From Actinomycetota bacterium (GTDB lineage: Bacteria; Actinomycetota; Actinomycetes; S36-B12; UBA10799): DNA of 35,891 bases. The notes under the pieces are model-generated. The model was not told the origin of the DNA. It ran no database searches and saw only the letters and a program-made list of their open reading frames with translations. A program made the position numbers and the translations under genes. Below are positions 25,323 through 35,891 of the stretch, piece by piece. The number at the start of each line of letters is the position of its first letter. The stretch's first letter is position 1. The DNA lies in the NCBI GenBank assembly GCA_963169225.1, contig CAUJDH010000089.1, forward strand, positions 1 through 35,891, written 5' to 3'.

Positions 25323-26105
25323 ATGACGGATCAAGCCACACCATTTTCAGCTGTGAGGTCGACTAGCTCGGTTGCTTCGACTCGCTCAGCTGGAGCAAAC
25401 TCGCAAATTTCCCCCTCCGTGGAGATTGCTCTTGTTGGTGGGGCTGTCCAGGTTCGAAAGGCATCGGATCTGGGCGAGGTTGCTGACTCTCTGATTCCAG
25501 TTACTCCCCAGCTCAAGCCGCTCTTCCCCCGAGGCGGTCTTGAGCGGGGGGTGACTTGTTCGATCCGTGCAGATCTAGGGGCCATGTCGCTATTGGTGAA
25601 TCTGTTGGCGTATCCCTTGGCTCAAGAGAAGTGGGTCAGCATGGTTGGCTTCTCAGGCTGTGTTCCGTTGGCTTTCGAAGAGGCTTGTGCCGGATTCGAG
25701 CTGAGCGAGAGTGCTGGTTCCTTGTCGAGCTTATTACGCAGGCTTGTCATGGTTCCAAGTCCAGTCGGTGACGCGGGTGAGGTCATAGGTGCCGCCATCG
25801 AAAGCATGGACATAGTTGTCATCAATTCCTCTGTGCTCAAACTAGCCCCGAGGGTTTGGAGTCGACTCGCTGCGAAACTGCGTTCTTCTGGGGCGGCGCT
25901 TATCGTGTTGGGCGCAGCGCAAGGTCGTGCGGAGCTTGAGTGTCGGGTCGTTGAACAGCGCTGGTTTGGTTTAGGTCGGGGTCAAGGACGGTTGCGGGCG
26001 CAAGAGTTGCAGGTGCGATCGCGTACTAAGCGAGACGCTCAATTTCGTGAATGTGTGGTGGAGGTGGGCCAGCATGCGAGTTATGGCATTGAAATGGCAA
26101 GATGA
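25323..26105 (+). CDS. imuA': ImuA', RecA-like mutasome accessory protein
   Basis: 260-aa RecA-fold protein first in the SOS mutasome operon. It shows the ImuA' pattern LKPLFPRGGLERGVTCSI, then MDIVVINSS and a C-terminal basic part. No Walker A lysine is visible, consistent with an adaptor rather than an ATPase. Family knowledge: it binds ImuB and RecA and helps DnaE2 copy damaged DNA. The Ala/Ser-rich N-terminus is probably disordered. The start at ATG 25323 appears leaderless. It overlaps imuB by 32 nt. Confidence 0.85.
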   Translation: MTDQATPFSAVRSTSSVASTRSAGANSQISPSVEIALVGGAVQVRKASDLGEVADSLIPVTPQLKPLFPRGGLERGVTCSIRADLGAMSLLVNLLAYPLAQEKWVSMVGFSGCVPLAFEEACAGFELSESAGSLSSLLRRLVMVPSPVGDAGEVIGAAIESMDIVVINSSVLKLAPRVWSRLAAKLRSSGAALIVLGAAQGRAELECRVVEQRWFGLGRGQGRLRAQELQVRSRTKRDAQFRECVVEVGQHASYGIEMAR

Positions 26106-27420
26106 GCAACTTGTTCCTGAACAGGTGATGGGCGACCTTATGCAGGTAGTTGCCGATATCGAGGTGCATAGTTCTGCGCAGTGCTTTATTCCTGCGGGAG
26201 CGCCCTCTCGTTTTTACGGGAGTGAACTAAAGGCTGCCCGCGCGATCGTTCGGTCGACGACGTCGAAGGTGACATTAGGGTGTGCCAACGACCGGTTTGC
26301 TGCGCAATGTGCGGCGCAAGTGGCAGGTGCTCGTAAGGGGAGGTTGTGCATCGTTCCACCTGAACAGAATGCGACTTTTGTGGGTGAGCTACCGATTGGG
26401 CTACTTGATAATCCTGAGGTCTGTGAGGTGCTCGTTGGTTTAGGTGTATACACCTTGGGTAAGTTCGCAGAACTGAGTCCAGCTGCTGTGCGAACTCGTT
26501 TTGGTGCAGAGGCTGCTTTTATGCACGAGTTGGTTCGAGGGCGTGATCGACGTCCAATGCAGTTGTTTCGGCCGCATTCTGTGCTTGCAGTAGTGCGAGA
26601 ATTTGAGAGTCCAAGTGTCGATATAGACGGAGTTGTTTACGGTTCGCGATTGTTGGCGGGGCAATTGTGCTTGGAGGTTGAACATGCCGGTGTCGCTTGC
26701 CTTGAGGTTGAACTGACTCTTGAGACGGAACACGATGAGGTTCATGTTCGCCGATGGCGTGCAGTCACGATCTTCGATCAAGATTCACTCGTTGAACGAG
26801 TGAGATGGCAGCTCGAACATTGGTTGCGAGACTCCCATTCACGACCAAGCGCTGGGATATCAAAGATCAAAATCGAGGCAATCCATGTGGTATCTCTCAA
26901 GGAACTTCAATCCGGTCTATGGGGGGAACTCTCCGAATCTGATCAACGGGCGCATCGTGGTCTCGATCGCATGCGCGGGCTTGTGGGGGTTGATCAAGTT
27001 CTTGAAGTCGGTGTTCAAGGGGGTAGAGATCCGCGTGATCGCACGGTACTAGTTCCACATACAGAGGCGTCGGGCAGAGAGCGTCAACCGAAGAATCGGC
27101 CTTGGCCAGGGCAGATTCCGGCTCCCTCGCCAGTGACGATTCATACGCCACCGGTAGTGATCGACTTGCTCGATCGTGAAGGGCGTGCGGTAGAGATCAC
27201 AAGTCGTGGAAATCTGAGTGGATCACCTACTGTGCTTCGAAAATCAGGTAAGCAAATGCCGCTCACAGGTTGGGCGGGGCCGTGGCTGGCGGATGCTAGA
27301 TGGTGGTCGGAGCAAGACCAACAACGCTGTGCGTGGTTTCAGATGTTGACGGCAGACGGTCACGCTTATCTTTGTCGACTAGATGCTGACGGCGCGGTAA
27401 TCGAGGCTAGCTATGACTAG
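26074..27420 (+). CDS. imuB: ImuB, Y-family-like clamp-binding mutasome protein, N-terminally shortened
   Basis: 448-aa catalytically inactive Y-family polymerase relative that bridges ImuA', DnaE2 and the beta clamp. Recognisable parts: RFYGSELKAARAI, ANDRFAAQCAAQVAGA, LLDNPEVCEVLVGLGVYTLGKFAELS, RFGAEA, LVRGRDRRP, and the clamp motif QSGLWG within LKELQSGLWGEL. After MRVMALKW the usual block of about 70 residues (CPDWP, then NRVVACS..A...GVRRGM) is absent and the chain resumes at the equivalent of the DRDA..FEPV region. GGAGG at 26060-26064 sets ATG 26074; the frame is open to 26047. It overlaps dnaE2 by 8 nt. Confidence 0.85.
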   Translation: MRVMALKWQDEQLVPEQVMGDLMQVVADIEVHSSAQCFIPAGAPSRFYGSELKAARAIVRSTTSKVTLGCANDRFAAQCAAQVAGARKGRLCIVPPEQNATFVGELPIGLLDNPEVCEVLVGLGVYTLGKFAELSPAAVRTRFGAEAAFMHELVRGRDRRPMQLFRPHSVLAVVREFESPSVDIDGVVYGSRLLAGQLCLEVEHAGVACLEVELTLETEHDEVHVRRWRAVTIFDQDSLVERVRWQLEHWLRDSHSRPSAGISKIKIEAIHVVSLKELQSGLWGELSESDQRAHRGLDRMRGLVGVDQVLEVGVQGGRDPRDRTVLVPHTEASGRERQPKNRPWPGQIPAPSPVTIHTPPVVIDLLDREGRAVEITSRGNLSGSPTVLRKSGKQMPLTGWAGPWLADARWWSEQDQQRCAWFQMLTADGHAYLCRLDADGAVIEASYD

Positions 27421-30400
27421 AGCGAGTGCGCGAACTCGATATGCCGAGTTACATGCGCACTCGCACTACAGCTTTCTCGATGGAGCCTGTTCGCCAGAAG
27501 AGATGGTCAAGGTAGCTACAGATTTAGAGCTAGAGGCTCTGGCGCTTATTGACCACGATGGTCTTTATGGTCTCGTTCGGTTCACTGAGGCGGCTAGAGA
27601 GTTTGGATTGCCGACAGTGATCGGTGCTGAGTTGAGTATTAATCAGCTTCAGCGAGGTAATGGCGTGCCGGATCCTTCGGCAGAACATCTAGTCGTTCAT
27701 GCTCGAAATCCTTCAGGGTACGCACAGCTATCTCGCACGATCTCGCGTGCCAATCTGGCTGGCTCGAAAGGTTTCCCTAATTTTTCGTGGCAAGACTTTG
27801 GGGAGGCGGCGCAGGGGAGTGATTGGGCAGTTCTAACTGGTTGTCGCAAGGGTCCAGTTGTACAAGCGCTCGAACAAAACGGGGTGAGTGAAGCGGAACG
27901 CGCTCTAGCAAGACTCATCGAAATTTGTGGGCGAGACAATCTTTTCGTTGAACTGTGGCATCATCACGATCCGCGAGATGACGACAGGAACGAGGTGCTC
28001 TACCAACTTGCCCGCAAGCTCAAAGTGCAAGCAGTGGCGACAATGAATGCCCATTCCTGTTCGCCTGAGCACATTCGGTTGGCCCAGCAATTAGCCGCGA
28101 TCCGTGCGAGTTCGTCCCTTGATGAACTCGATGGCTGGCTGCCATCGGCTCCGGCGTCTCATTTGCGTAGTGGGGCAGAGCAGCAAGCCCGATTCCACTA
28201 CTACCCAGGAGTGGTCGAGGAGGCGGCAGAGCTAGCTGCTGATCTAGCTTTCGACCTTAAGCTCACCGCGCCGGAGTTGCCGCTATGTAGAACTGAGTCA
28301 GGTTTGACAGAGATTCAGTACCTGCGTAAATCGGTAGAGCAGGAGGCGGTGAAATATTACGGCACGCGGAAGGCCGAGAAGATCGCTGGCGCATGGGCTC
28401 GAATCGACTTCGAGCTAGACATCATCGAGCGCCTGAATTTTGCGGGCTACTTCCTCATCGTGTGGGAGATCGTTCAGTTCTGCAAAGAACAGAACATCTA
28501 TTGCCAGGGGCGAGGATCGGCGGCGAGTTCCGCGGTTTGCTACGTGTTGGGTATTACCGTCGTCGATGCAGTGAAGTTCGATCTACTCTTTGATCGGTTC
28601 CTCTCGCCTGCCAGAGAGGGCGCGCCGGATATCGACATTGACATCGAGTCGGGCCGCAGAGAAGAAGTGATCCAACACGTCTATGAGAAATACGGTCGCG
28701 AACATTGCGCCCAGGTGAGCAATGTCATCAGTTATCGCTCTCGCTCAGCAATTCGTGATGCAGCTAAAGTCTATGGTCACGACCCTGACAGTTTCACATT
28801 GGGCGGCCGGAGGAAGGGCCTCACCACGATCCGCGAGGAAGGGCGCATACCGGAGGAAGTGGGCGAACTGGCACAGCAGATCAAGGGTAAACCGCGACAT
28901 CTCGGAGTTCATAGTGGCGGCCTGGTGATGTGTGATCGTCCGGTCATTGAGGTATGTCCGGTGGAGTGGGCCACAGCCGAGAATCGCAGCGTGCTCCAGT
29001 GGGATAAAGACGATTGCGCTGAGGCGGGTCTGGTCAAGTTCGACCTACTTGGCCTGGGCATGCTTGAGGCATTGCATCGTGCCGTTGACCTCATTGCCGA
29101 GCACTATGGCAAACATGTCGATCTATCCTTGTTGCCACAAGAGGACGAGGTTTACGACCGGCTCTGTGCTGCCGATACCGTCGGCGTATTTCAGGTTGAA
29201 TCTCGCGCTCAAATGTCCACCTTGCCAAGAATGCAGCCACGCGAATTCAAAGACCTCGTGGTGGAGATCGCCTTGATTCGGCCAGGGCCAATTCAAGGTG
29301 GTTCAGTGCACCCGTACCTACGTCGGCGTAAGGGGGTAGAAGCTTCCATATCGTTACATCCGTTGATGGCGGATATCCTAAAAGACACTTGTGGTGTACC
29401 GCTGTTCCAGGAGCAGATTATGCGGATCGCTGTTGAAGTTGGCGGATTTGGCGCAGGAGAAGCCGATCAGCTACGCAGGGCGATGGGTTCTAAAAGATTC
29501 GAAGAAAAGTCGGCATTGCTCAAGGGCAAACTTTATGCCGGAATGGCAAGCAAGGGTGTTGATCGAACGACCTCAGACAGGTTGTGGGAGATGGTCAAAG
29601 GCTTTGCGCATTTTGGTTTTCCCGAATCGCATGCGGCCTCATTCGCGGGATTGGTGTACGCCTCGTCTTGGATCAAACTTCACTACCCGGAAGTGTTCTT
29701 GGTGGCACTTCTCAATTCGCAGCCGGTGGGTTTCTGGTCACCGGCGACTTTGGTTGCTGATGCTCGCAGGCATGGCGTTACGGTTGTGCGGGCTGACGTC
29801 AATGTCTCTGGAGTTGAAGCAAAGTTAGAACGTGCCGAAGCTGATAAAGGTGATTCTGCGGCGGAGCATCCCTTTGTGGTGCGCTTAGGGCTAGCCGGGA
29901 TCAACAAAATTGGTACGAAGACTGCTGAGCGAATCGTGGCAAATGCACCCTATGTGAGTGTTGCTGAGCTCGCTAAATTGGCGGCGCTCAAAGAACCACA
30001 ACTCGAGCAGCTTGCCACAGCAGGTGCGCTAGAGAGTCTCGACAAGGGAGATCGCCGTCAGAGTTTATGGTTGGCAGCTCCTGCCGTGCGATGGAATGGG
30101 CAAATAAATCGCACTCGTGCCAAACAAGTGGAGACAATCCCAGGTTTGGAAATACCCGTACCGCAAGTGGAGCTCGCGGCGATGACTCCTCATGAAGAGA
30201 TAGCGCATGACATTAGGGCAACCAAACTCACTGCGGACGCTTCGGTTGCTGATCTGTTGCGGCCAGCGTTGGCGGGGCGACACGTGGTTCCGGCCAACCA
30301 GTTGATGCAAGTATCTGACGGTAATCGAGTGCAGGTGGCTGGTGTCATAACCCACCGCCAGCGCCCGGGTACAGGTAAAGGAGTGGTGTTCGTGAGTCTG

Positions 30401-30595
30401 GAAGATCCGACTGGCCTTATCAACGTGGTGTGTTCGCCCGGCCTAGTGATGCGTTATGACGAAGTGTTTGACGAAGCTGACGCATTGTTGGTGTCGGGCA
30501 AAGTTGAGCAGAGTGACGGAGTCGTCAATGTAGTGGCGAGGAAGCTCGAACTGCTCAAGGTGTCGGTAGCGCCACCTTCGCGCAATTACTGTTAG
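27413..30595 (+). CDS. dnaE2: Error-prone DNA polymerase DnaE2
   Basis: 1060-aa C-family polymerase for damage-induced mutagenesis. The order is: PHP domain starting AELHAHSHYSFLDG, polymerase core with RGSAASSAVCYVLGIT, catalytic PDIDIDIESGRREEV, GRRKGLTTIREEGR, HLGVHSGGLV, VKFDLLGLGMLEAL, RPGPIQGG, FPESHAASFAGLVYASSW, helix-hairpin region GLAGINKIGTKTAERI, and a C-terminal OB fold (VAGVITHRQRPGTGKGVVFVSLED). The third acidic position is DIE rather than the common DFE or DTDF, with the catalytic Asp residues kept. Placement after imuA'-imuB identifies DnaE2 rather than the replicative DnaE1. SOS-inducible through the box at 25295. Confidence 0.96.
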   Translation: MTRASARTRYAELHAHSHYSFLDGACSPEEMVKVATDLELEALALIDHDGLYGLVRFTEAAREFGLPTVIGAELSINQLQRGNGVPDPSAEHLVVHARNPSGYAQLSRTISRANLAGSKGFPNFSWQDFGEAAQGSDWAVLTGCRKGPVVQALEQNGVSEAERALARLIEICGRDNLFVELWHHHDPRDDDRNEVLYQLARKLKVQAVATMNAHSCSPEHIRLAQQLAAIRASSSLDELDGWLPSAPASHLRSGAEQQARFHYYPGVVEEAAELAADLAFDLKLTAPELPLCRTESGLTEIQYLRKSVEQEAVKYYGTRKAEKIAGAWARIDFELDIIERLNFAGYFLIVWEIVQFCKEQNIYCQGRGSAASSAVCYVLGITVVDAVKFDLLFDRFLSPAREGAPDIDIDIESGRREEVIQHVYEKYGREHCAQVSNVISYRSRSAIRDAAKVYGHDPDSFTLGGRRKGLTTIREEGRIPEEVGELAQQIKGKPRHLGVHSGGLVMCDRPVIEVCPVEWATAENRSVLQWDKDDCAEAGLVKFDLLGLGMLEALHRAVDLIAEHYGKHVDLSLLPQEDEVYDRLCAADTVGVFQVESRAQMSTLPRMQPREFKDLVVEIALIRPGPIQGGSVHPYLRRRKGVEASISLHPLMADILKDTCGVPLFQEQIMRIAVEVGGFGAGEADQLRRAMGSKRFEEKSALLKGKLYAGMASKGVDRTTSDRLWEMVKGFAHFGFPESHAASFAGLVYASSWIKLHYPEVFLVALLNSQPVGFWSPATLVADARRHGVTVVRADVNVSGVEAKLERAEADKGDSAAEHPFVVRLGLAGINKIGTKTAERIVANAPYVSVAELAKLAALKEPQLEQLATAGALESLDKGDRRQSLWLAAPAVRWNGQINRTRAKQVETIPGLEIPVPQVELAAMTPHEEIAHDIRATKLTADASVADLLRPALAGRHVVPANQLMQVSDGNRVQVAGVITHRQRPGTGKGVVFVSLEDPTGLINVVCSPGLVMRYDEVFDEADALLVSGKVEQSDGVVNVVARKLELLKVSVAPPSRNYC

Positions 30596-31215: not shown

Positions 31216-33147
31216 CTAACTTCCGTTGATCGCCGTGATGATTGTGTGGGCTATGAAGCCACCTATCCAGGCGAGTACAAACATATAAGTGAACGCGAAG
31301 GCAGGCCATCTTCGAGAGTTAGTTTCTCTTCGCATAACCGCCACCGTCGACATGCATTGCAGGGCAAACACGAAGAACACCAGGATTGCGCCGACAGTTG
31401 CCGGTGGGTACATAGGTGATCCGTCTGGATTTGTCTGAGCCTGCAGTGCCTCTCCGACACTACTGACATCGTCATCGCTTTCGGCCGAGGCAATCTGACC
31501 CAATGTCGCGACAAAGGTCTCACGAGCCGTGAGTGAGCCGATTAGGGCAACATTGATTTCCCAGTTGAAGCCAAGAGGCTCAAACACTGGTTCGACGGTT
31601 CGTCCGATCGTGCCAGCCACCGAATGCTCTAGCTGATAGCTGACAGCTTGTTGGTCGGTCAGGTTCTCGGGGGGAGTAACAACAGGGACGTGGAGCAAGA
31701 TCCAGATGGCGATCGAGGCACCGAGGATGATTGTTCCCGCCTTGCGCAGGAAGTACTTCGATGAGTCCCAGCATTGGGTAAAGACGAGGCGAATACCTGG
31801 AATGCGGTACGGAGGCATCTCCATATAGAAGGGGAGCTTGTCACTCTTGAGTGAGGTGCGCTTGAGGATCGCAGCAACGATCATTGCGCTCACTGCGCCT
31901 AAGAAGTACAGGCCGAATAGTACGAGACCTTGTGCGCGTAGTGGTCCCCACACGCTTTCGTTGGGAATGAACGTTGCAATAAACAAGGTGTAAACCGGCA
32001 AGCGAGCCGAGCACGTCATAAGTGGAGCGACCATGATTGTTGCGATGCGGTCGCGCGACGAAGGAATCGTTCGAGTCGACATGATTCCTGGTACGGCACA
32101 GGCGTAAGACGAGAACAGTGAGACGAAGCAGCGTCCTTCAAGGCCCACAACACCCATTGCACGGTCCATCACAAGGGCAGCTCGCGACATGTAGCCGATA
32201 TTTTCGAGGAACGACACCACGAGGAACAACAAGATGATCTGTGGCAAGAACTGGATCACAGTTCCGACACCGGCAAACACGCCGTCGGCCAACAAACTCG
32301 CGAGCCAATCGATTTGGATGTTCTCGGTACACCAGTCGCCAGCGGCATCGAACAGCCCGGATATATAGTCCTGCAGCGGAGTCGCCAGTGTAAAGATGAT
32401 CTGGAAGAAGATGATCAAGACCAGGAAGAAGAACAGCACACCCAAAATCGGGTTGAGTAGGATCCGGTCAAACCAGGCGGTGCGCTTGTGGCCGGCTGGC
32501 GGGTTGTGTGAAATAGCTTCGAGGACTGAGTCGATCCAGGCGGCTTGCTCGGCCGGTTCTGATGGAGGAGTGACGACAGGCTTTGGCCATGCCATTGGAT
32601 CGCGCAGCAATCCTTTGACGTCATCTACGCCAGTGCCTTTGGTTCCGACAATTTCGACGACCGGAACTCCGAGGATGTTTTCCATTTTTTCTTTGTCGAT
32701 GAATCCACCGCGATGTGCCAATTCGTCGACCATTGTGATTACCACGATCGTCGGCAGACCGAGATCAAGAACTTGCCCCACCAAGATCAGGGAACGTTCG
32801 ATTGTCGTTGCGTCGCACACGACAATCGCGGCGTCTGGCGGCTCAACGCCGTCCATTTTTCCTTCGAGTAGATCCGACACGACTTGTTCGTCGGGACTCA
32901 CCGGGGTGAGGCTATAGGTTCCAGGTAGATCCTCGATCGACACGGTGCCGCCAGGCACTGAGGCCTGTCCGACACTGCGGGTGACTGTCACACCCGGGTA
33001 GTTACCTGTCTTGGCGCGAAGACCTGTTAGTCGGTTGAACAAGGTTGTCTTGCCGGCGTTAGGGCTTCCGATCAGTGCGATCCGTGCTTGACGGGTCGCT
33101 AGACTGCCGCTTGGTTCAGCTTGCCCAGCCGGTTCATGGCAACTCAT
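31216..33147 (-). CDS. feoB: Ferrous iron transporter FeoB
   Basis: 643-aa Fe(II) importer with an N-terminal GTPase domain: G1 GSPNAGKT (27-34), YPGVTV switch region, G3 DLPG (73-76). G4 reads TMVD (138-141), with Thr where Asn is usual. A membrane domain with two Gate regions follows (MTCSARLPVYTLFIATFIP, and LTARETFVATLGQ). The C-terminus ends in two more helices with no C-terminal Cys cluster. It overlaps feoA by 4 nt (ATGA) and is followed by nfu. Control by the iron box upstream of feoA is likely. Confidence 0.95.
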   Translation of the reverse strand: MSCHEPAGQAEPSGSLATRQARIALIGSPNAGKTTLFNRLTGLRAKTGNYPGVTVTRSVGQASVPGGTVSIEDLPGTYSLTPVSPDEQVVSDLLEGKMDGVEPPDAAIVVCDATTIERSLILVGQVLDLGLPTIVVITMVDELAHRGGFIDKEKMENILGVPVVEIVGTKGTGVDDVKGLLRDPMAWPKPVVTPPSEPAEQAAWIDSVLEAISHNPPAGHKRTAWFDRILLNPILGVLFFFLVLIIFFQIIFTLATPLQDYISGLFDAAGDWCTENIQIDWLASLLADGVFAGVGTVIQFLPQIILLFLVVSFLENIGYMSRAALVMDRAMGVVGLEGRCFVSLFSSYACAVPGIMSTRTIPSSRDRIATIMVAPLMTCSARLPVYTLFIATFIPNESVWGPLRAQGLVLFGLYFLGAVSAMIVAAILKRTSLKSDKLPFYMEMPPYRIPGIRLVFTQCWDSSKYFLRKAGTIILGASIAIWILLHVPVVTPPENLTDQQAVSYQLEHSVAGTIGRTVEPVFEPLGFNWEINVALIGSLTARETFVATLGQIASAESDDDVSSVGEALQAQTNPDGSPMYPPATVGAILVFFVFALQCMSTVAVMRRETNSRRWPAFAFTYMFVLAWIGGFIAHTIITAINGS

Positions 33148-33392
33148 GCCACTTCCTCCACTGTGACTTTGATGGTGGACGATTCGCGTTTACGCAAACT
33201 CATTTGATTGCCGCGGAGTTCAAAGACAGTGGGGTCACCCAAAGGTGCTCGTCTAACGACTTTGATTCGGGTTCCTGGCAAGAAGCCTAAGTGCGAGAGT
33301 CGGGCGACAACGGAATCGTCGGGGCCGTCGACTTGGACGATGACAGCAACTGATCCCTTTTCCACCTCGGTAAGCGTGACGATGTCGGACAT
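33144..33392 (-). CDS. feoA: FeoA, SH3-like partner of FeoB
   Basis: 82-aa protein of the FeoA family: VEKGSVAVIVQVDGPD, RLSHLGFLPGTRIKVVRRAPLGDPTVFELRGNQMSLRK. It binds or supports FeoB at the cytosolic side. The frame is open to a TTG at 33407, but AAGGAG six nt before ATG 33392 gives the start. First gene of feoA-feoB-nfu. Confidence 0.94.
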   Translation of the reverse strand: MSDIVTLTEVEKGSVAVIVQVDGPDDSVVARLSHLGFLPGTRIKVVRRAPLGDPTVFELRGNQMSLRKRESSTIKVTVEEVA

Positions 33393-33453
33393 CGAGTACT
33401 CCTTCAATCCTGAACAGCGGCGCCCACAATGGGTGCACGGATAAGCTATGGAT

Positions 33454-33472
33454 CAAAGTAAGGCAAACCTAA
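33454..33472 (-). promoter_or_regulatory. DtxR/IdeR-type iron box upstream of feoA
   Basis: Minus-strand TTAGGTTTGCCTTACTTTG matches 14 of 19 positions of the DtxR/IdeR consensus by hand, with TTAGGTT and GCCT best conserved. It overlaps the gap between a possible -35 (TAGGTT) and a possible -10 (TAGCTT, about 33444-33449 on the minus strand). This predicts iron-dependent repression of feoAB-nfu, and perhaps of the divergent gene at 33650. Confidence 0.65.
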
Positions 33473-33574
33473 CCTACATTGCAAGATATAAATGTCCGGG
33501 GTGAATTTCGGGCGTTTATCCCCTTACATAAATAACCCCACTGGGTTACTGTGACCTAGGTAATACTATTGGGA

Positions 33575-33649: not shown

Positions 33650-34483
33650 ATGTCACGTGCAGTCACTACAGCGGTAGTGGTGGGTGCGGACACAACTTTG
33701 GTGCTGGCCAGATGCAGATCAAGCTCAAATTCTTCTGATGATGCCTCAGCCACAGCAGGAACACCAACAGCAACAAATACTGGCTCGACAACCACAATTG
33801 GTCCGCGGAGTGGAACAACGCAGCTCAGTAATCAAGCAGTCGGTGACGCTACCTACACGCGATACAGCACCTCTAAGACTCCAAAAGACGTTGTTTCCTT
33901 TGCAGCTCCACGGGCACGTTTTCGCGCTATAGGTGTCGACTCTGGTGGGCTATTTGATCCTTTTATGGGTCAGGCCATCGTTGATCTTGGCTACGACAAG
34001 GATTTTGAATTTCTGGCCAGGCCCGACTCCACCAAGACAAATGAAGGTCACGCCAATTGGGTTCAGTCGTCGGCAACCCAAGAGGGTGATGATTTGGAGG
34101 TGGGTTCCCGGGGCCGCACCGATATTCCAATTACAATCGACCCTGATGCGGGCGGTGCCTGTATTCGTCCGGGCATCGAACCGCTCACAGTTACCCTTCG
34201 CTCTGGTTCGGTGTGTTCAAGTGGAACTCTCAAACGTGTCTGGCAGCACCAGGGTCGTACGGTTCATCATCTTTTGGACCCTGTGAAAGCTGAACCGGTA
34301 AGGGGCGAGTTCATTGCCGTGAGTGCTATTGCAGAAGTCGGCTGGCAGGCCGAAGTGCTGACCAAAGTCGCGCTCCTGGGAGGTCCAGGCGCGATCAAAT
34401 CGATACTTGAGAAGTGGCCGCAATCTCATGTGATGGCTTGGACTGAATCGGGCGAGATGAAACAGTTCTCGGTGGCTACCTAG
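33650..34483 (+). CDS. Degraded ApbE-like (FAD:protein FMN transferase) protein with lipoprotein-like N-terminus
   Basis: 277-aa open frame. Residues about 1-60 look like a damaged lipoprotein leader (hydrophobic stretch, Cys22 in LARC, then a Ser/Thr-rich linker). SGGLFDPFMGQAIVDLGYD (about 97-115) and SGTLKRVWQHQGRTVHHLLDP (about 189-209) are clear ApbE motifs. Between them the usual DLGGI.KG and NaGGD segments are missing, as is the N-terminal MGT region, and the late D..aT metal-site motif reads EVLTK. Catalysis is therefore unlikely. The N-terminal part could come from an FMN-binding lipoprotein, often ApbE's neighbour. No other frame restores the missing parts. The start has a poor ribosome site. 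Probably a decaying or chimeric gene. Confidence 0.6.
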   Translation: MSRAVTTAVVVGADTTLVLARCRSSSNSSDDASATAGTPTATNTGSTTTIGPRSGTTQLSNQAVGDATYTRYSTSKTPKDVVSFAAPRARFRAIGVDSGGLFDPFMGQAIVDLGYDKDFEFLARPDSTKTNEGHANWVQSSATQEGDDLEVGSRGRTDIPITIDPDAGGACIRPGIEPLTVTLRSGSVCSSGTLKRVWQHQGRTVHHLLDPVKAEPVRGEFIAVSAIAEVGWQAEVLTKVALLGGPGAIKSILEKWPQSHVMAWTESGEMKQFSVAT

Positions 34484-34525: not shown

Positions 34526-35008
34526 CTACTCTGGCCCTTGCTTTGCAACGTTGATATCGGTTTCCCAAGACTCGGCTAGTTCTTTGAGCTTGACGAGGGC
34601 CTTGGGCCATAGGTCGTTCATCATCTCTTCGTACTCGTCCGGTAAACCGATGATGTCGATCGATAGATGAGTGCCGTCACTGACATCTTCAAACGTGTAG
34701 TTTTCAAGAACAGGAGTGTCGCCTGGATAGGGAACCCGTTCGTTACCTCGGATTTCGCCTAGGTGTTCGACTGATACGTATTCGTGTTGTCGGTTCTCTG
34801 CGACTCGTGAATACATGCCGCCGCTTTCACCGGTTTCAGATTCTGATCCAAGGAACTCAATATTGCTTCCTTGATCCCAACTACCTTCGTAGTGGGAACT
34901 AGGTTCGAAGATCGCCGTCCACTTTTGGTATGTGTCAGGCGAGAGCATGACGTCCCAAACCATAGGTCGAGGCGACTGGATGATGATGGAGTAATGAAGG
35001 TCAGCCAT
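34526..35008 (-). CDS. SRPBCC family protein (AHSA1-like)
   Basis: 160-aa protein of the START/Bet v1-like fold: MVWDVMLSPDTYQKWTAIFEPSS, GSWDQGSNIEFLG, EYVSVEHLGEIRG, and a C-terminal helix (EMMNDLWPKALVKLKELAE). Members bind hydrophobic ligands or assist other proteins; no specific role can be given. AAGGA lies eight nt before ATG 35008. It stands alone. Confidence 0.85.
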   Translation of the reverse strand: MADLHYSIIIQSPRPMVWDVMLSPDTYQKWTAIFEPSSHYEGSWDQGSNIEFLGSESETGESGGMYSRVAENRQHEYVSVEHLGEIRGNERVPYPGDTPVLENYTFEDVSDGTHLSIDIIGLPDEYEEMMNDLWPKALVKLKELAESWETDINVAKQGPE

Positions 35009-35086
35009 AACTAAATCCTTGCGGACTGTTTGGCAGGTGTCCCTTTAAGTAACCCTGTGGGTGAATGAAACCCCAGCCTGTTTCGC

Positions 35087-35165
35087 TACGTGCCCCCGGG
35101 GTGACTCGACGTGCTGAATGGTTCGATTCGCTTGGGAGCACTTACGTGCCCCCGGCGTGACTCGA
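35087..35165. repeat. Duplicated 3' end of tRNA-Arg(CCG)
   Basis: A 23-bp direct repeat: 35087-35109 matches 35143-35165 with one mismatch. The second copy is the acceptor and T-arm 3' half of the tRNA gene; the first lies 56 bp beyond its 3' end. The spacer holds no gene. This is the pattern left by a tRNA-targeting element or an old tRNA duplication. Confidence 0.7.
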
Positions 35166-35218
35166 ACACGCGCACATGGCTTCGGAGGCCAATGCTCTAT
35201 CCTCTGAGCTACGGGGGC
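35147..35218 (-). tRNA. tRNA-Arg (anticodon CCG)
   Basis: Folded by hand on the minus strand: acceptor GCCCCCG with CGGGGGC and discriminator A, D arm TAGCTCAGAGG, anticodon stem TGGC/GCCA with loop CTCCGAA (anticodon CCG, reading CGG), T loop TTCGAGT. No CCA is encoded. It is the second tRNA-Arg gene of the window. Confidence 0.94.
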
Positions 35219-35267
35219 TCAGTTGCTTGGCCACTCTACCAAGTGGATCTGCGTGCAGAGTCGATGC

Positions 35268-35891
35268 TTAGCTCATGAAGATGCCAGCGATGCCTGAGTA
35301 AACGCCCAGGCCGGCGGTGGCAATAGACACGATGCAAATGAGCCAGGCGTACCAACCTTTGAGTCGGTACTTGTCGGGCAGGGCTTTGAGCGCAAGCAAT
35401 ACGAGAAATCCGAGCACGATTGGTAGTAGCAGTGCATTCATCACTTGGATGCCGATGTTGAAATCCACGATGTTGACGCCGGAGACCACGATGATGATGC
35501 CAGCCAGCAGCACAGCAACGAAAACAATGTAGAACCATGGAGCTTCTTTGGGGCTCGATTCGAGGGTGCGCTTGTAACCGGTGAGTTCGCCTAGTCCCCA
35601 GGCGGCAGTGAGGCAAGCTACGATTGCGGCCACCAGGGCGGCGCCTGACATGCCGATTGAGAACAACACCCGGCCGCCAAAGTCACCGAGCCATGGCGTG
35701 ATGGCTTCAGAAATCTGTTCGACTGTGTTGAGATCGGTAGTGCCTTGGTGGGCCCACAGCGTTGCAGCGCAGGTGATGATCATGGCAATCATGACCATTT
35801 GCGTCACCACCGAGCCAATGGCAGTGTCCCAGCGAGATCCTCGAATGTCATGGATCGTGAGACCCTTATCGACCACAGCTGATTGTTGGTA
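35268..35891 (-). CDS. NRAMP family divalent metal transporter, C-terminal part (cut by window edge)
   Basis: The frame is open to the window edge and the gene continues beyond. The visible 207 residues read YQQSAVVDKGL at the start, then about six helices, including VVTQMVMIAMIITCAATLWA, VLFSIGMSGAALVAAIVACLTAAW, and VDFNIGIQVMNALLLPIVLGFLVLLAL. This is the C-terminal half of a proton-coupled Mn(II)/Fe(II) importer. The internal GTG at 35876 is not the true start. With feoAB nearby it adds to metal uptake in this region, though it is separated by other genes. Confidence 0.85.
   Translation of the reverse strand, partial: YQQSAVVDKGLTIHDIRGSRWDTAIGSVVTQMVMIAMIITCAATLWAHQGTTDLNTVEQISEAITPWLGDFGGRVLFSIGMSGAALVAAIVACLTAAWGLGELTGYKRTLESSPKEAPWFYIVFVAVLLAGIIIVVSGVNIVDFNIGIQVMNALLLPIVLGFLVLLALKALPDKYRLKGWYAWLICIVSIATAGLGVYSGIAGIFMS

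What the first reader, a model, noticed from the sequence alone, without database searches (positions are those of the whole stretch)
33650..34483. Chimeric or decaying ApbE-like gene next to the iron operon
Clear ApbE segments (GGLFDP, HHLLDP) flank a gap where the metal- and flavin-binding core should be, and the N-terminus resembles a damaged lipoprotein. It may be a deletion fusion of an FMN-binding lipoprotein and ApbE, a pair that often occurs together in extracellular electron-transfer or iron-reduction loci.
Basis: partly seen in the sequence, partly recalled or inferred. Interest (0 to 1): 0.5.

Follow-up and report, generated by a model that had tools for sequence, protein, structure and literature searches.

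The report
Decaying remnant of lipoprotein–ApbE gene pair
An actinobacterium carries the shrunken, probably dead remains of two neighbouring genes, a small lipoprotein and a flavin-attaching enzyme (ApbE), joined into one reading frame by deletions; relatives still have both genes intact, so this looks like ordinary gene decay.

Summary
ORF 33650-34483 (277 aa) is an in-frame fusion of two neighbouring genes that relatives keep separate. Residues 6-84 are the N-terminal half of a small lipoprotein with a broken lipobox (LARC instead of LAGC). Residues 98-176 and 180-272 are two pieces of ApbE. The ApbE N-terminus and about 58 residues holding DSGGIGKG...GGDV...GWRIGI are gone. The layout occurs in 1 of 166 genomes of the order, the window's own. 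They lie beside ApbE in several families of the order and in Solirubrobacterales. In G006 and G008, where feoB was located, it is not beside the pair. The genome has no other ApbE and no FMN_bind protein, so ApbE-dependent flavinylation has probably been lost. Against simple old decay: both clear deletions are in frame, there is no stop, and conserved ApbE positions are intact. Decay must be recent, or a stub is still expressed. No same-genus genome was held, so dN/dS could not be tested. Ordinary finding; low interest.

The parts
33650..34483 (+). Whole ORF, 277 aa: in-frame fusion of lipoprotein remnant and ApbE remnants
   Evidence: layout found in 1 of 166 genomes of the order
33665..33901 (+). 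Remnant of the N-terminal half of a Mog1/PsbP-like lipoprotein (aa 6-84 = profile 11-96 of 179)
   Evidence: 37.0 bits; E 9.7e-11, 41.9 bits with A1
33704..33715 (+). Broken lipobox, LARC (aa 19-22), where most homologues read AGC or AAC
   Evidence: alignment, position
33902..33940 (+). Junction 1 (aa 85-97): lipoprotein C-terminal half and ApbE N-terminus deleted; RFRAIG (aa 90-95, 33917-33934) may be a scrap of the ApbE N-terminus (RFRAMG)
   Evidence: the scrap is weak: 24 of 2000 random 14-mers score as well in the first 60 columns
33941..34177 (+). ApbE piece 1 (aa 98-176, begins SGGLFDPFMG; strong only to about aa 127, then a variable linker)
   Evidence: 34.5 bits; aa 86-130 alone 31.4 bits
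34178..34186 (+). Junction 2 (aa 177-179): about 58 aa of the ApbE core (DSGGIGKG...GGDV...GWRIGIDDP) deleted in frame
34187..34465 (+). ApbE piece 2 (aa 180-272) with HHLLDP (aa 206-211) and AEVLTK (aa 234-239)
   Evidence: (85.7 bits)
31216..33407 (-). Neighbouring feoB-like (31216-33147) and feoA-like (33144-33407) genes, divergent from the ORF
   Evidence: ORFs; FeoA/FeoB names recalled from sequence; feoB homologues
34526..35876 (-). Neighbours on the other side: AHSA1-domain gene (34526-35008) and an Nramp gene at the window's end (35268-35876, may run off the window)
   Evidence: Pfam

Best explanation
The ORF is the remnant of a two-gene unit, lipoprotein then apbE, that is losing or has lost its function. 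One deletion joined the middle of the lipoprotein gene to the apbE gene (possibly in two steps), and another removed the flavin-binding part of ApbE; the lipobox was lost by substitution. The product, if made, cannot be a normal lipoprotein or a working FMN transferase. As this is the only ApbE found in the genome and there is no FMN_bind protein, the species has probably given up ApbE-dependent flavinylation. Shown: the homology of the pieces, what is missing, the intact pair in relatives, the absence of other copies in a 96%-complete assembly. Inferred: loss of function, recent timing, order of events.
For: Pieces of both genes, in the same order and orientation as the intact pair. Missing ApbE profile positions 1-88 and 156-218 and missing lipoprotein positions 97-179. 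The lipoprotein piece breaks conserved positions more often than any of 14 intact rows: 3 of 6 invariant, 5 of 14 at 85%, 9 of 19 at 75% (one in each set is the junction residue); other rows at most 2 of 8, 4 of 12, 6 of 20. Layout seen in 1 of 166 genomes. No second ApbE, no FMN_bind. Predicted structure of the ORF: mean pLDDT 48.4; residues 1-38 and 40-172 under 50. No sigma-70-like promoter by a simple scan, which covers few promoter types.
Against: No stop or frameshift in 277 codons, and both clear deletions keep the frame (1 in 9 by chance; 1 in 27 if the RFRAIG scrap is real). The ApbE pieces are not eroded: 0 of 14 invariant, 1 of 20 at 90% and 3 of 28 at 80% conserved positions changed, the same as in 18 intact homologues (0-2, 0-3 and 0-7 changes). 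Codon usage of aa 85-277 looks like that of a normal gene (0.19-0.22 against 0.10-0.34 bits per codon). By simulation, neutral drift of more than about 0.05-0.1 substitutions per site is unlikely (no stop and no change at the 14 positions in 7.3% of runs at 0.05 and 0.7% at 0.10), so decay must be recent.
Confidence: 0.76

Rival explanations
1. The fused, shortened gene is kept: a 277-aa protein with a degenerate export signal and the ApbE C-terminal subdomain does something other than FMN transfer (for example binding a partner or nucleotide).
For: In-frame deletions, no stop, intact conserved positions in the ApbE pieces, normal codon usage there, last 90 or so residues modelled with block-mean pLDDT of 68-87.
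Against: Only this genome has it (1 of 166); lipoprotein part eroded and lipobox lost; 184 of 277 residues of the model below pLDDT 50; flavin-binding loop and ApbE N-terminus missing.
Confidence: 0.13
2. The deletions are assembly errors of this contig and the real genome holds an intact pair at this place.
For: The genome is in 109 contigs and is probably a metagenome assembly; reads were not available.
Against: Both junctions keep the frame; the lipobox and proline substitutions are not explained by misassembly; no other ApbE and no match to the lipoprotein's C-terminal half was found elsewhere in the assembly, apart from weak paralogues.
Confidence: 0.09
3. The N-terminal part comes from a classical FMN-binding lipoprotein of an iron-reduction or electron-transfer locus.
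For: ApbE and FMN-binding genes often co-occur, and flavinylation genes co-locate with iron transporters in some bacteria (PMC8238504, passages read); feoAB and Nramp flank the ORF.
Against: Two intact homologues of the N-terminal part have no FMN_bind match; the model of the intact domain resembles Mog1/PsbP-like proteins; among 17 pair- or lipoprotein-bearing genomes, 9 have FMN_bind proteins but none in the pair itself; the pair is not beside feoB in G006 or G008.
Confidence: 0.02

Closest known systems
ApbE, FAD:protein FMN transferase (PF02424)
   Same: Two pieces with ApbE sequence, including GGLFDPF, the SSG and HHLLDP motifs and the AEVLTK helix start
   Different: Lacks the ApbE N-terminal third and about 58 residues with DSGGIGKG/GGDV; cannot be expected to bind FAD
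Mog1/PsbP-like bacterial lipoproteins (by predicted fold: DcrB, SciW/EagT6, LpqN, MTC28, PsbP among Foldseek rows; fold name recalled)
   Same: N-terminal half of the intact relatives' lipoprotein is recognisable
   Different: C-terminal half (GGGGWGQYGG, TYFEVC) deleted, lipobox broken; two intact members have no Pfam match above cut-off
FMN_bind lipoproteins (PF04205) paired with ApbE
   Same: Also exported proteins encoded next to apbE
   Different: No sequence match; different predicted fold; no D-x-x-[ST]-G-A-[ST] motif in 14 of 14 intact sequences

Membership tests
ApbE FMN transferase | Full-length PF02424 domain | tested here: not met
   Only profile 183-258 of 266 matched; 1-88 and 156-218 of the 313-position clade profile missing
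ApbE FMN transferase | Catalytic Ser/His/Asp positions (Vc_ApbE Ser241, His257, Asp285; PMC12052999, passages) | tested here: inconclusive
   SSG, HHLLDP and AEVLTK are present; the Asp position is Glu in the window and in the intact rows of this clade, so equivalence rests on alignment only
ApbE FMN transferase | Flavin-binding loop region (DSGGIGKG ... GGD) | tested here: not met
   Deleted in the window, present in 18 of 18 intact homologues aligned, with Ser replaced by Thr, Ala or Pro in some
Bacterial lipoprotein | Lipobox [LVI][ASTVI][GAS]C (consensus recalled) | tested here: not met
   LARC at aa 19-22
FMN_bind (PF04205) protein | PF04205 match | tested here: not met
   None in the ORF, none in two intact lipoproteins, none in the genome
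Pseudogene | Truncation or loss of essential parts relative to intact orthologues | tested here: met
Pseudogene | Loss of purifying selection | tested here: inconclusive
   Lipoprotein piece eroded, ApbE pieces not; no close relatives for dN/dS
Pseudogene | No functional product | not testable with these tools
   needs expression or proteomic data

The most novel reading that the evidence does not exclude
The intact unit that decayed here, a Mog1/PsbP-like lipoprotein encoded directly before ApbE in several families of this order (probably Nanopelagicales) and in Solirubrobacterales, is an undescribed ApbE partner or substrate without the FMN_bind domain and without the usual D-x-x-[ST]-G-A-[ST] motif; at least one near-complete genome (G006) has the pair but no FMN_bind protein.
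Probability: 0.25. Interest if true: 0.5.

Novelty: new member of a known kind. Interest (0 to 1): 0.2.

Why it matters
By itself little: one more lineage-specific gene loss. It shows how a species may lose ApbE-dependent flavinylation, and it pointed to a conserved lipoprotein-ApbE gene pair whose partnership is untested. ApbE genes without a known substrate are a recognised open point (PMC8238504, passages read: 17% of genomes in that dataset encoded ApbE but no FMN-binding protein, 4% after adding DUF2271 and DUF3570).

Tried and rejected
FMN_bind origin of the N-terminus: rejected. Same locus in relatives: the pair does not sit beside feo in G006 or G008, and the place where genus g7 has the pair (between DUF2017 and the JAMM gene) is empty in the window's genome, with a 75-bp gap, so the pair is found at different places in different lineages.

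Pairwise dN/dS against the nearest relatives was not computed: the retained ApbE pieces differ at about half of their residues (p-distance 0.48-0.57 to the closest rows), so synonymous sites would be saturated. Relative-rate look from the same distances, by hand: window branch about 0.30, against 0.26 for G010 and 0.19 for G039. The RFRAIG scrap as proof of a third deletion is too weak (24 of 2000 random peptides in the first 60 columns; 42 of 600 anywhere). Flavinylation motif in the intact lipoproteins: the full motif is in 0 of 14; SGAT or SGAS occurs in 4 of 14, at positions that are not conserved. Literature: 'Nanopelagicales' with 'ApbE' 0 papers; 'pseudogene', 'ApbE', 'in-frame deletion' 0 papers; one paper, seven papers with six listed. 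Only passages of PMC12052999 and PMC8238504 were read; the others were seen as listings with the start of the abstract.

Full report
What was checked. The ORF at 33650-34483 is real: 277 codons, ATG start, no internal stop. Pfam gives ApbE at residues 179-256 only, E 1.3e-11; the best PDB sequence matches are ApbE-type proteins over the same stretch.

Where the pieces come from. A search of 40 relatives gave two kinds of match in some of the same genomes: the C-terminal part of the ORF to ApbE frames (312-345 aa in the closest ones), and the first 85-88 residues to a separate small gene just upstream. Reading those loci showed a pair: a lipoprotein of about 175 aa, then apbE, same strand. In G006, G008, G009, G010 (same family) and G027, G039 (another family) the two are 6-28 bp apart. 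Profiles built from 18 intact ApbE and 14 intact lipoprotein sequences place the ORF as follows: aa 6-84 on lipoprotein positions 11-96 of 179; aa 98-176 on ApbE positions 89-155 of 313; aa 180-272 on 219-311. The order is that of the intact pair, so the ORF is the pair with the lipoprotein's C-terminal half plus the ApbE N-terminus removed, and about 58 residues of the ApbE core removed. In G039 terms the two ApbE pieces start at residues 83 and 213.

What is lost. The second gap takes out DSGGIGKG, GGDV and GWRIGI (alignment). The SSG, HHLLDP and AEVLTK stretches stay; they hold the positions of the Ser-His-Asp triad described for the Vibrio and Listeria enzymes (PMC12052999, passages), although the Asp position is Glu in this clade. 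The lipobox reads LARC. AlphaFold2 gives the ORF mean pLDDT 48.4, with confidence only over the last 90 or so residues.

Is the partner FMN-binding? No evidence. Two intact lipoproteins have no Pfam match above the cut-off. The AlphaFold2 model of the intact domain (12 sequences, pLDDT 83.0, pTM 0.77) has its best Foldseek rows among MTC28, SciW/EagT6, DcrB, PsbP and LpqN, none better than E 5.4e-3, so the fold call is tentative; I recognise these as the Mog1/PsbP-like fold (recalled). FMN_bind occurs in 9 of 17 genomes that carry the pair or its lipoprotein, but never as part of the pair; in G007 one lies on the same contig beside a second ApbE-like gene.

Spread of the pair. Of 32 loci given to, 17 hold the lipoprotein by BLAST after dropping 3 duplicates; 14 of the 17 also hold ApbE, 13 of these within 30 bp or overlapping, 11 of the 13 on the same strand with the lipoprotein first, 2 convergent. 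Three more Solirubrobacterales loci (L071, L072, L074) show it by motif. The neighbourhood changes: between DUF2017 and JAMM genes in genus g7, in the dcw cluster by ftsZ-like and ftsQ-like genes in family f3 (names read from sequence), elsewhere in f7. The window's genome keeps DUF2017 and JAMM next to each other with nothing between. The iron neighbourhood of the window therefore looks local: feoB is found in G006 and G008, but away from the pair.

Dead or alive? For decay: the parts missing are needed for transfer, the lipobox is lost, the lipoprotein piece is the most eroded of 15 rows, the layout is in 1 of 166 genomes, and there is no other ApbE or FMN_bind protein in the 96%-complete assembly. 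Against old decay: no stop, both clear deletions in frame, and the ApbE pieces keep conserved positions as well as intact homologues do (0 of 14, 1 of 20, 3 of 28 changed). Codon usage in aa 85-277 is like that of neighbouring genes, while aa 1-84 scores near zero (-0.014), which may only reflect its Ser/Thr-rich make-up. A simulation puts an upper limit of about 0.05-0.1 neutral substitutions per site since loss of constraint. I therefore favour recent decay (0.76) over a kept stub (0.13) or assembly error (0.09). The genus has no second genome here, so dN/dS is untested.

Identity of the organism. Not given.

Verdict. The explanation is most likely ordinary decay of a conserved gene pair; the FMN-binding and iron-reduction parts of the interpretation are not supported.

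Noticed in passing
L022 5349-7034, L024 7651-9290, L027 4622-6121, L073 616-2166 and others: Conserved adjacent pair of a Mog1/PsbP-like lipoprotein and an ApbE without obvious signal peptide (by eye), across families of the order and in Solirubrobacterales; G006 has the pair but no FMN_bind protein.
   Followed up: partly
L077 795-3184, L082 1-5144, L080 56-3529: In family f3 the pair lies in the dcw cluster, near ftsQ-like, murC-like and ftsZ-like genes (names read from sequence).
   Followed up: no
window 33457-33478: Sequence between feoA and the ORF (AAGTAAGGCAAACCTAACCTAC) resembles an IdeR/DtxR iron box; consensus recalled, not scored.
   Followed up: no
window 25323-30595: Three consecutive genes resembling the imuA-imuB-dnaE2 mutagenic repair cassette (recognised by eye).
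   Followed up: no
L127 7029-9837: A ferric-reductase-like gene, an FMN_bind gene and a second ApbE-like gene in a row, 2-4 kb from the lipoprotein-ApbE pair in G007.
   Followed up: partly
L083 2214-3187: Two tandem copies of the lipoprotein-like gene, convergent with ApbE, in G029; both lack an evident lipobox Cys.
   Followed up: no
L085 (G000:C73): Two ORFs in the window's own genome match the lipoprotein profile weakly (about 24 bits each), probably distant paralogues.
   Followed up: partly
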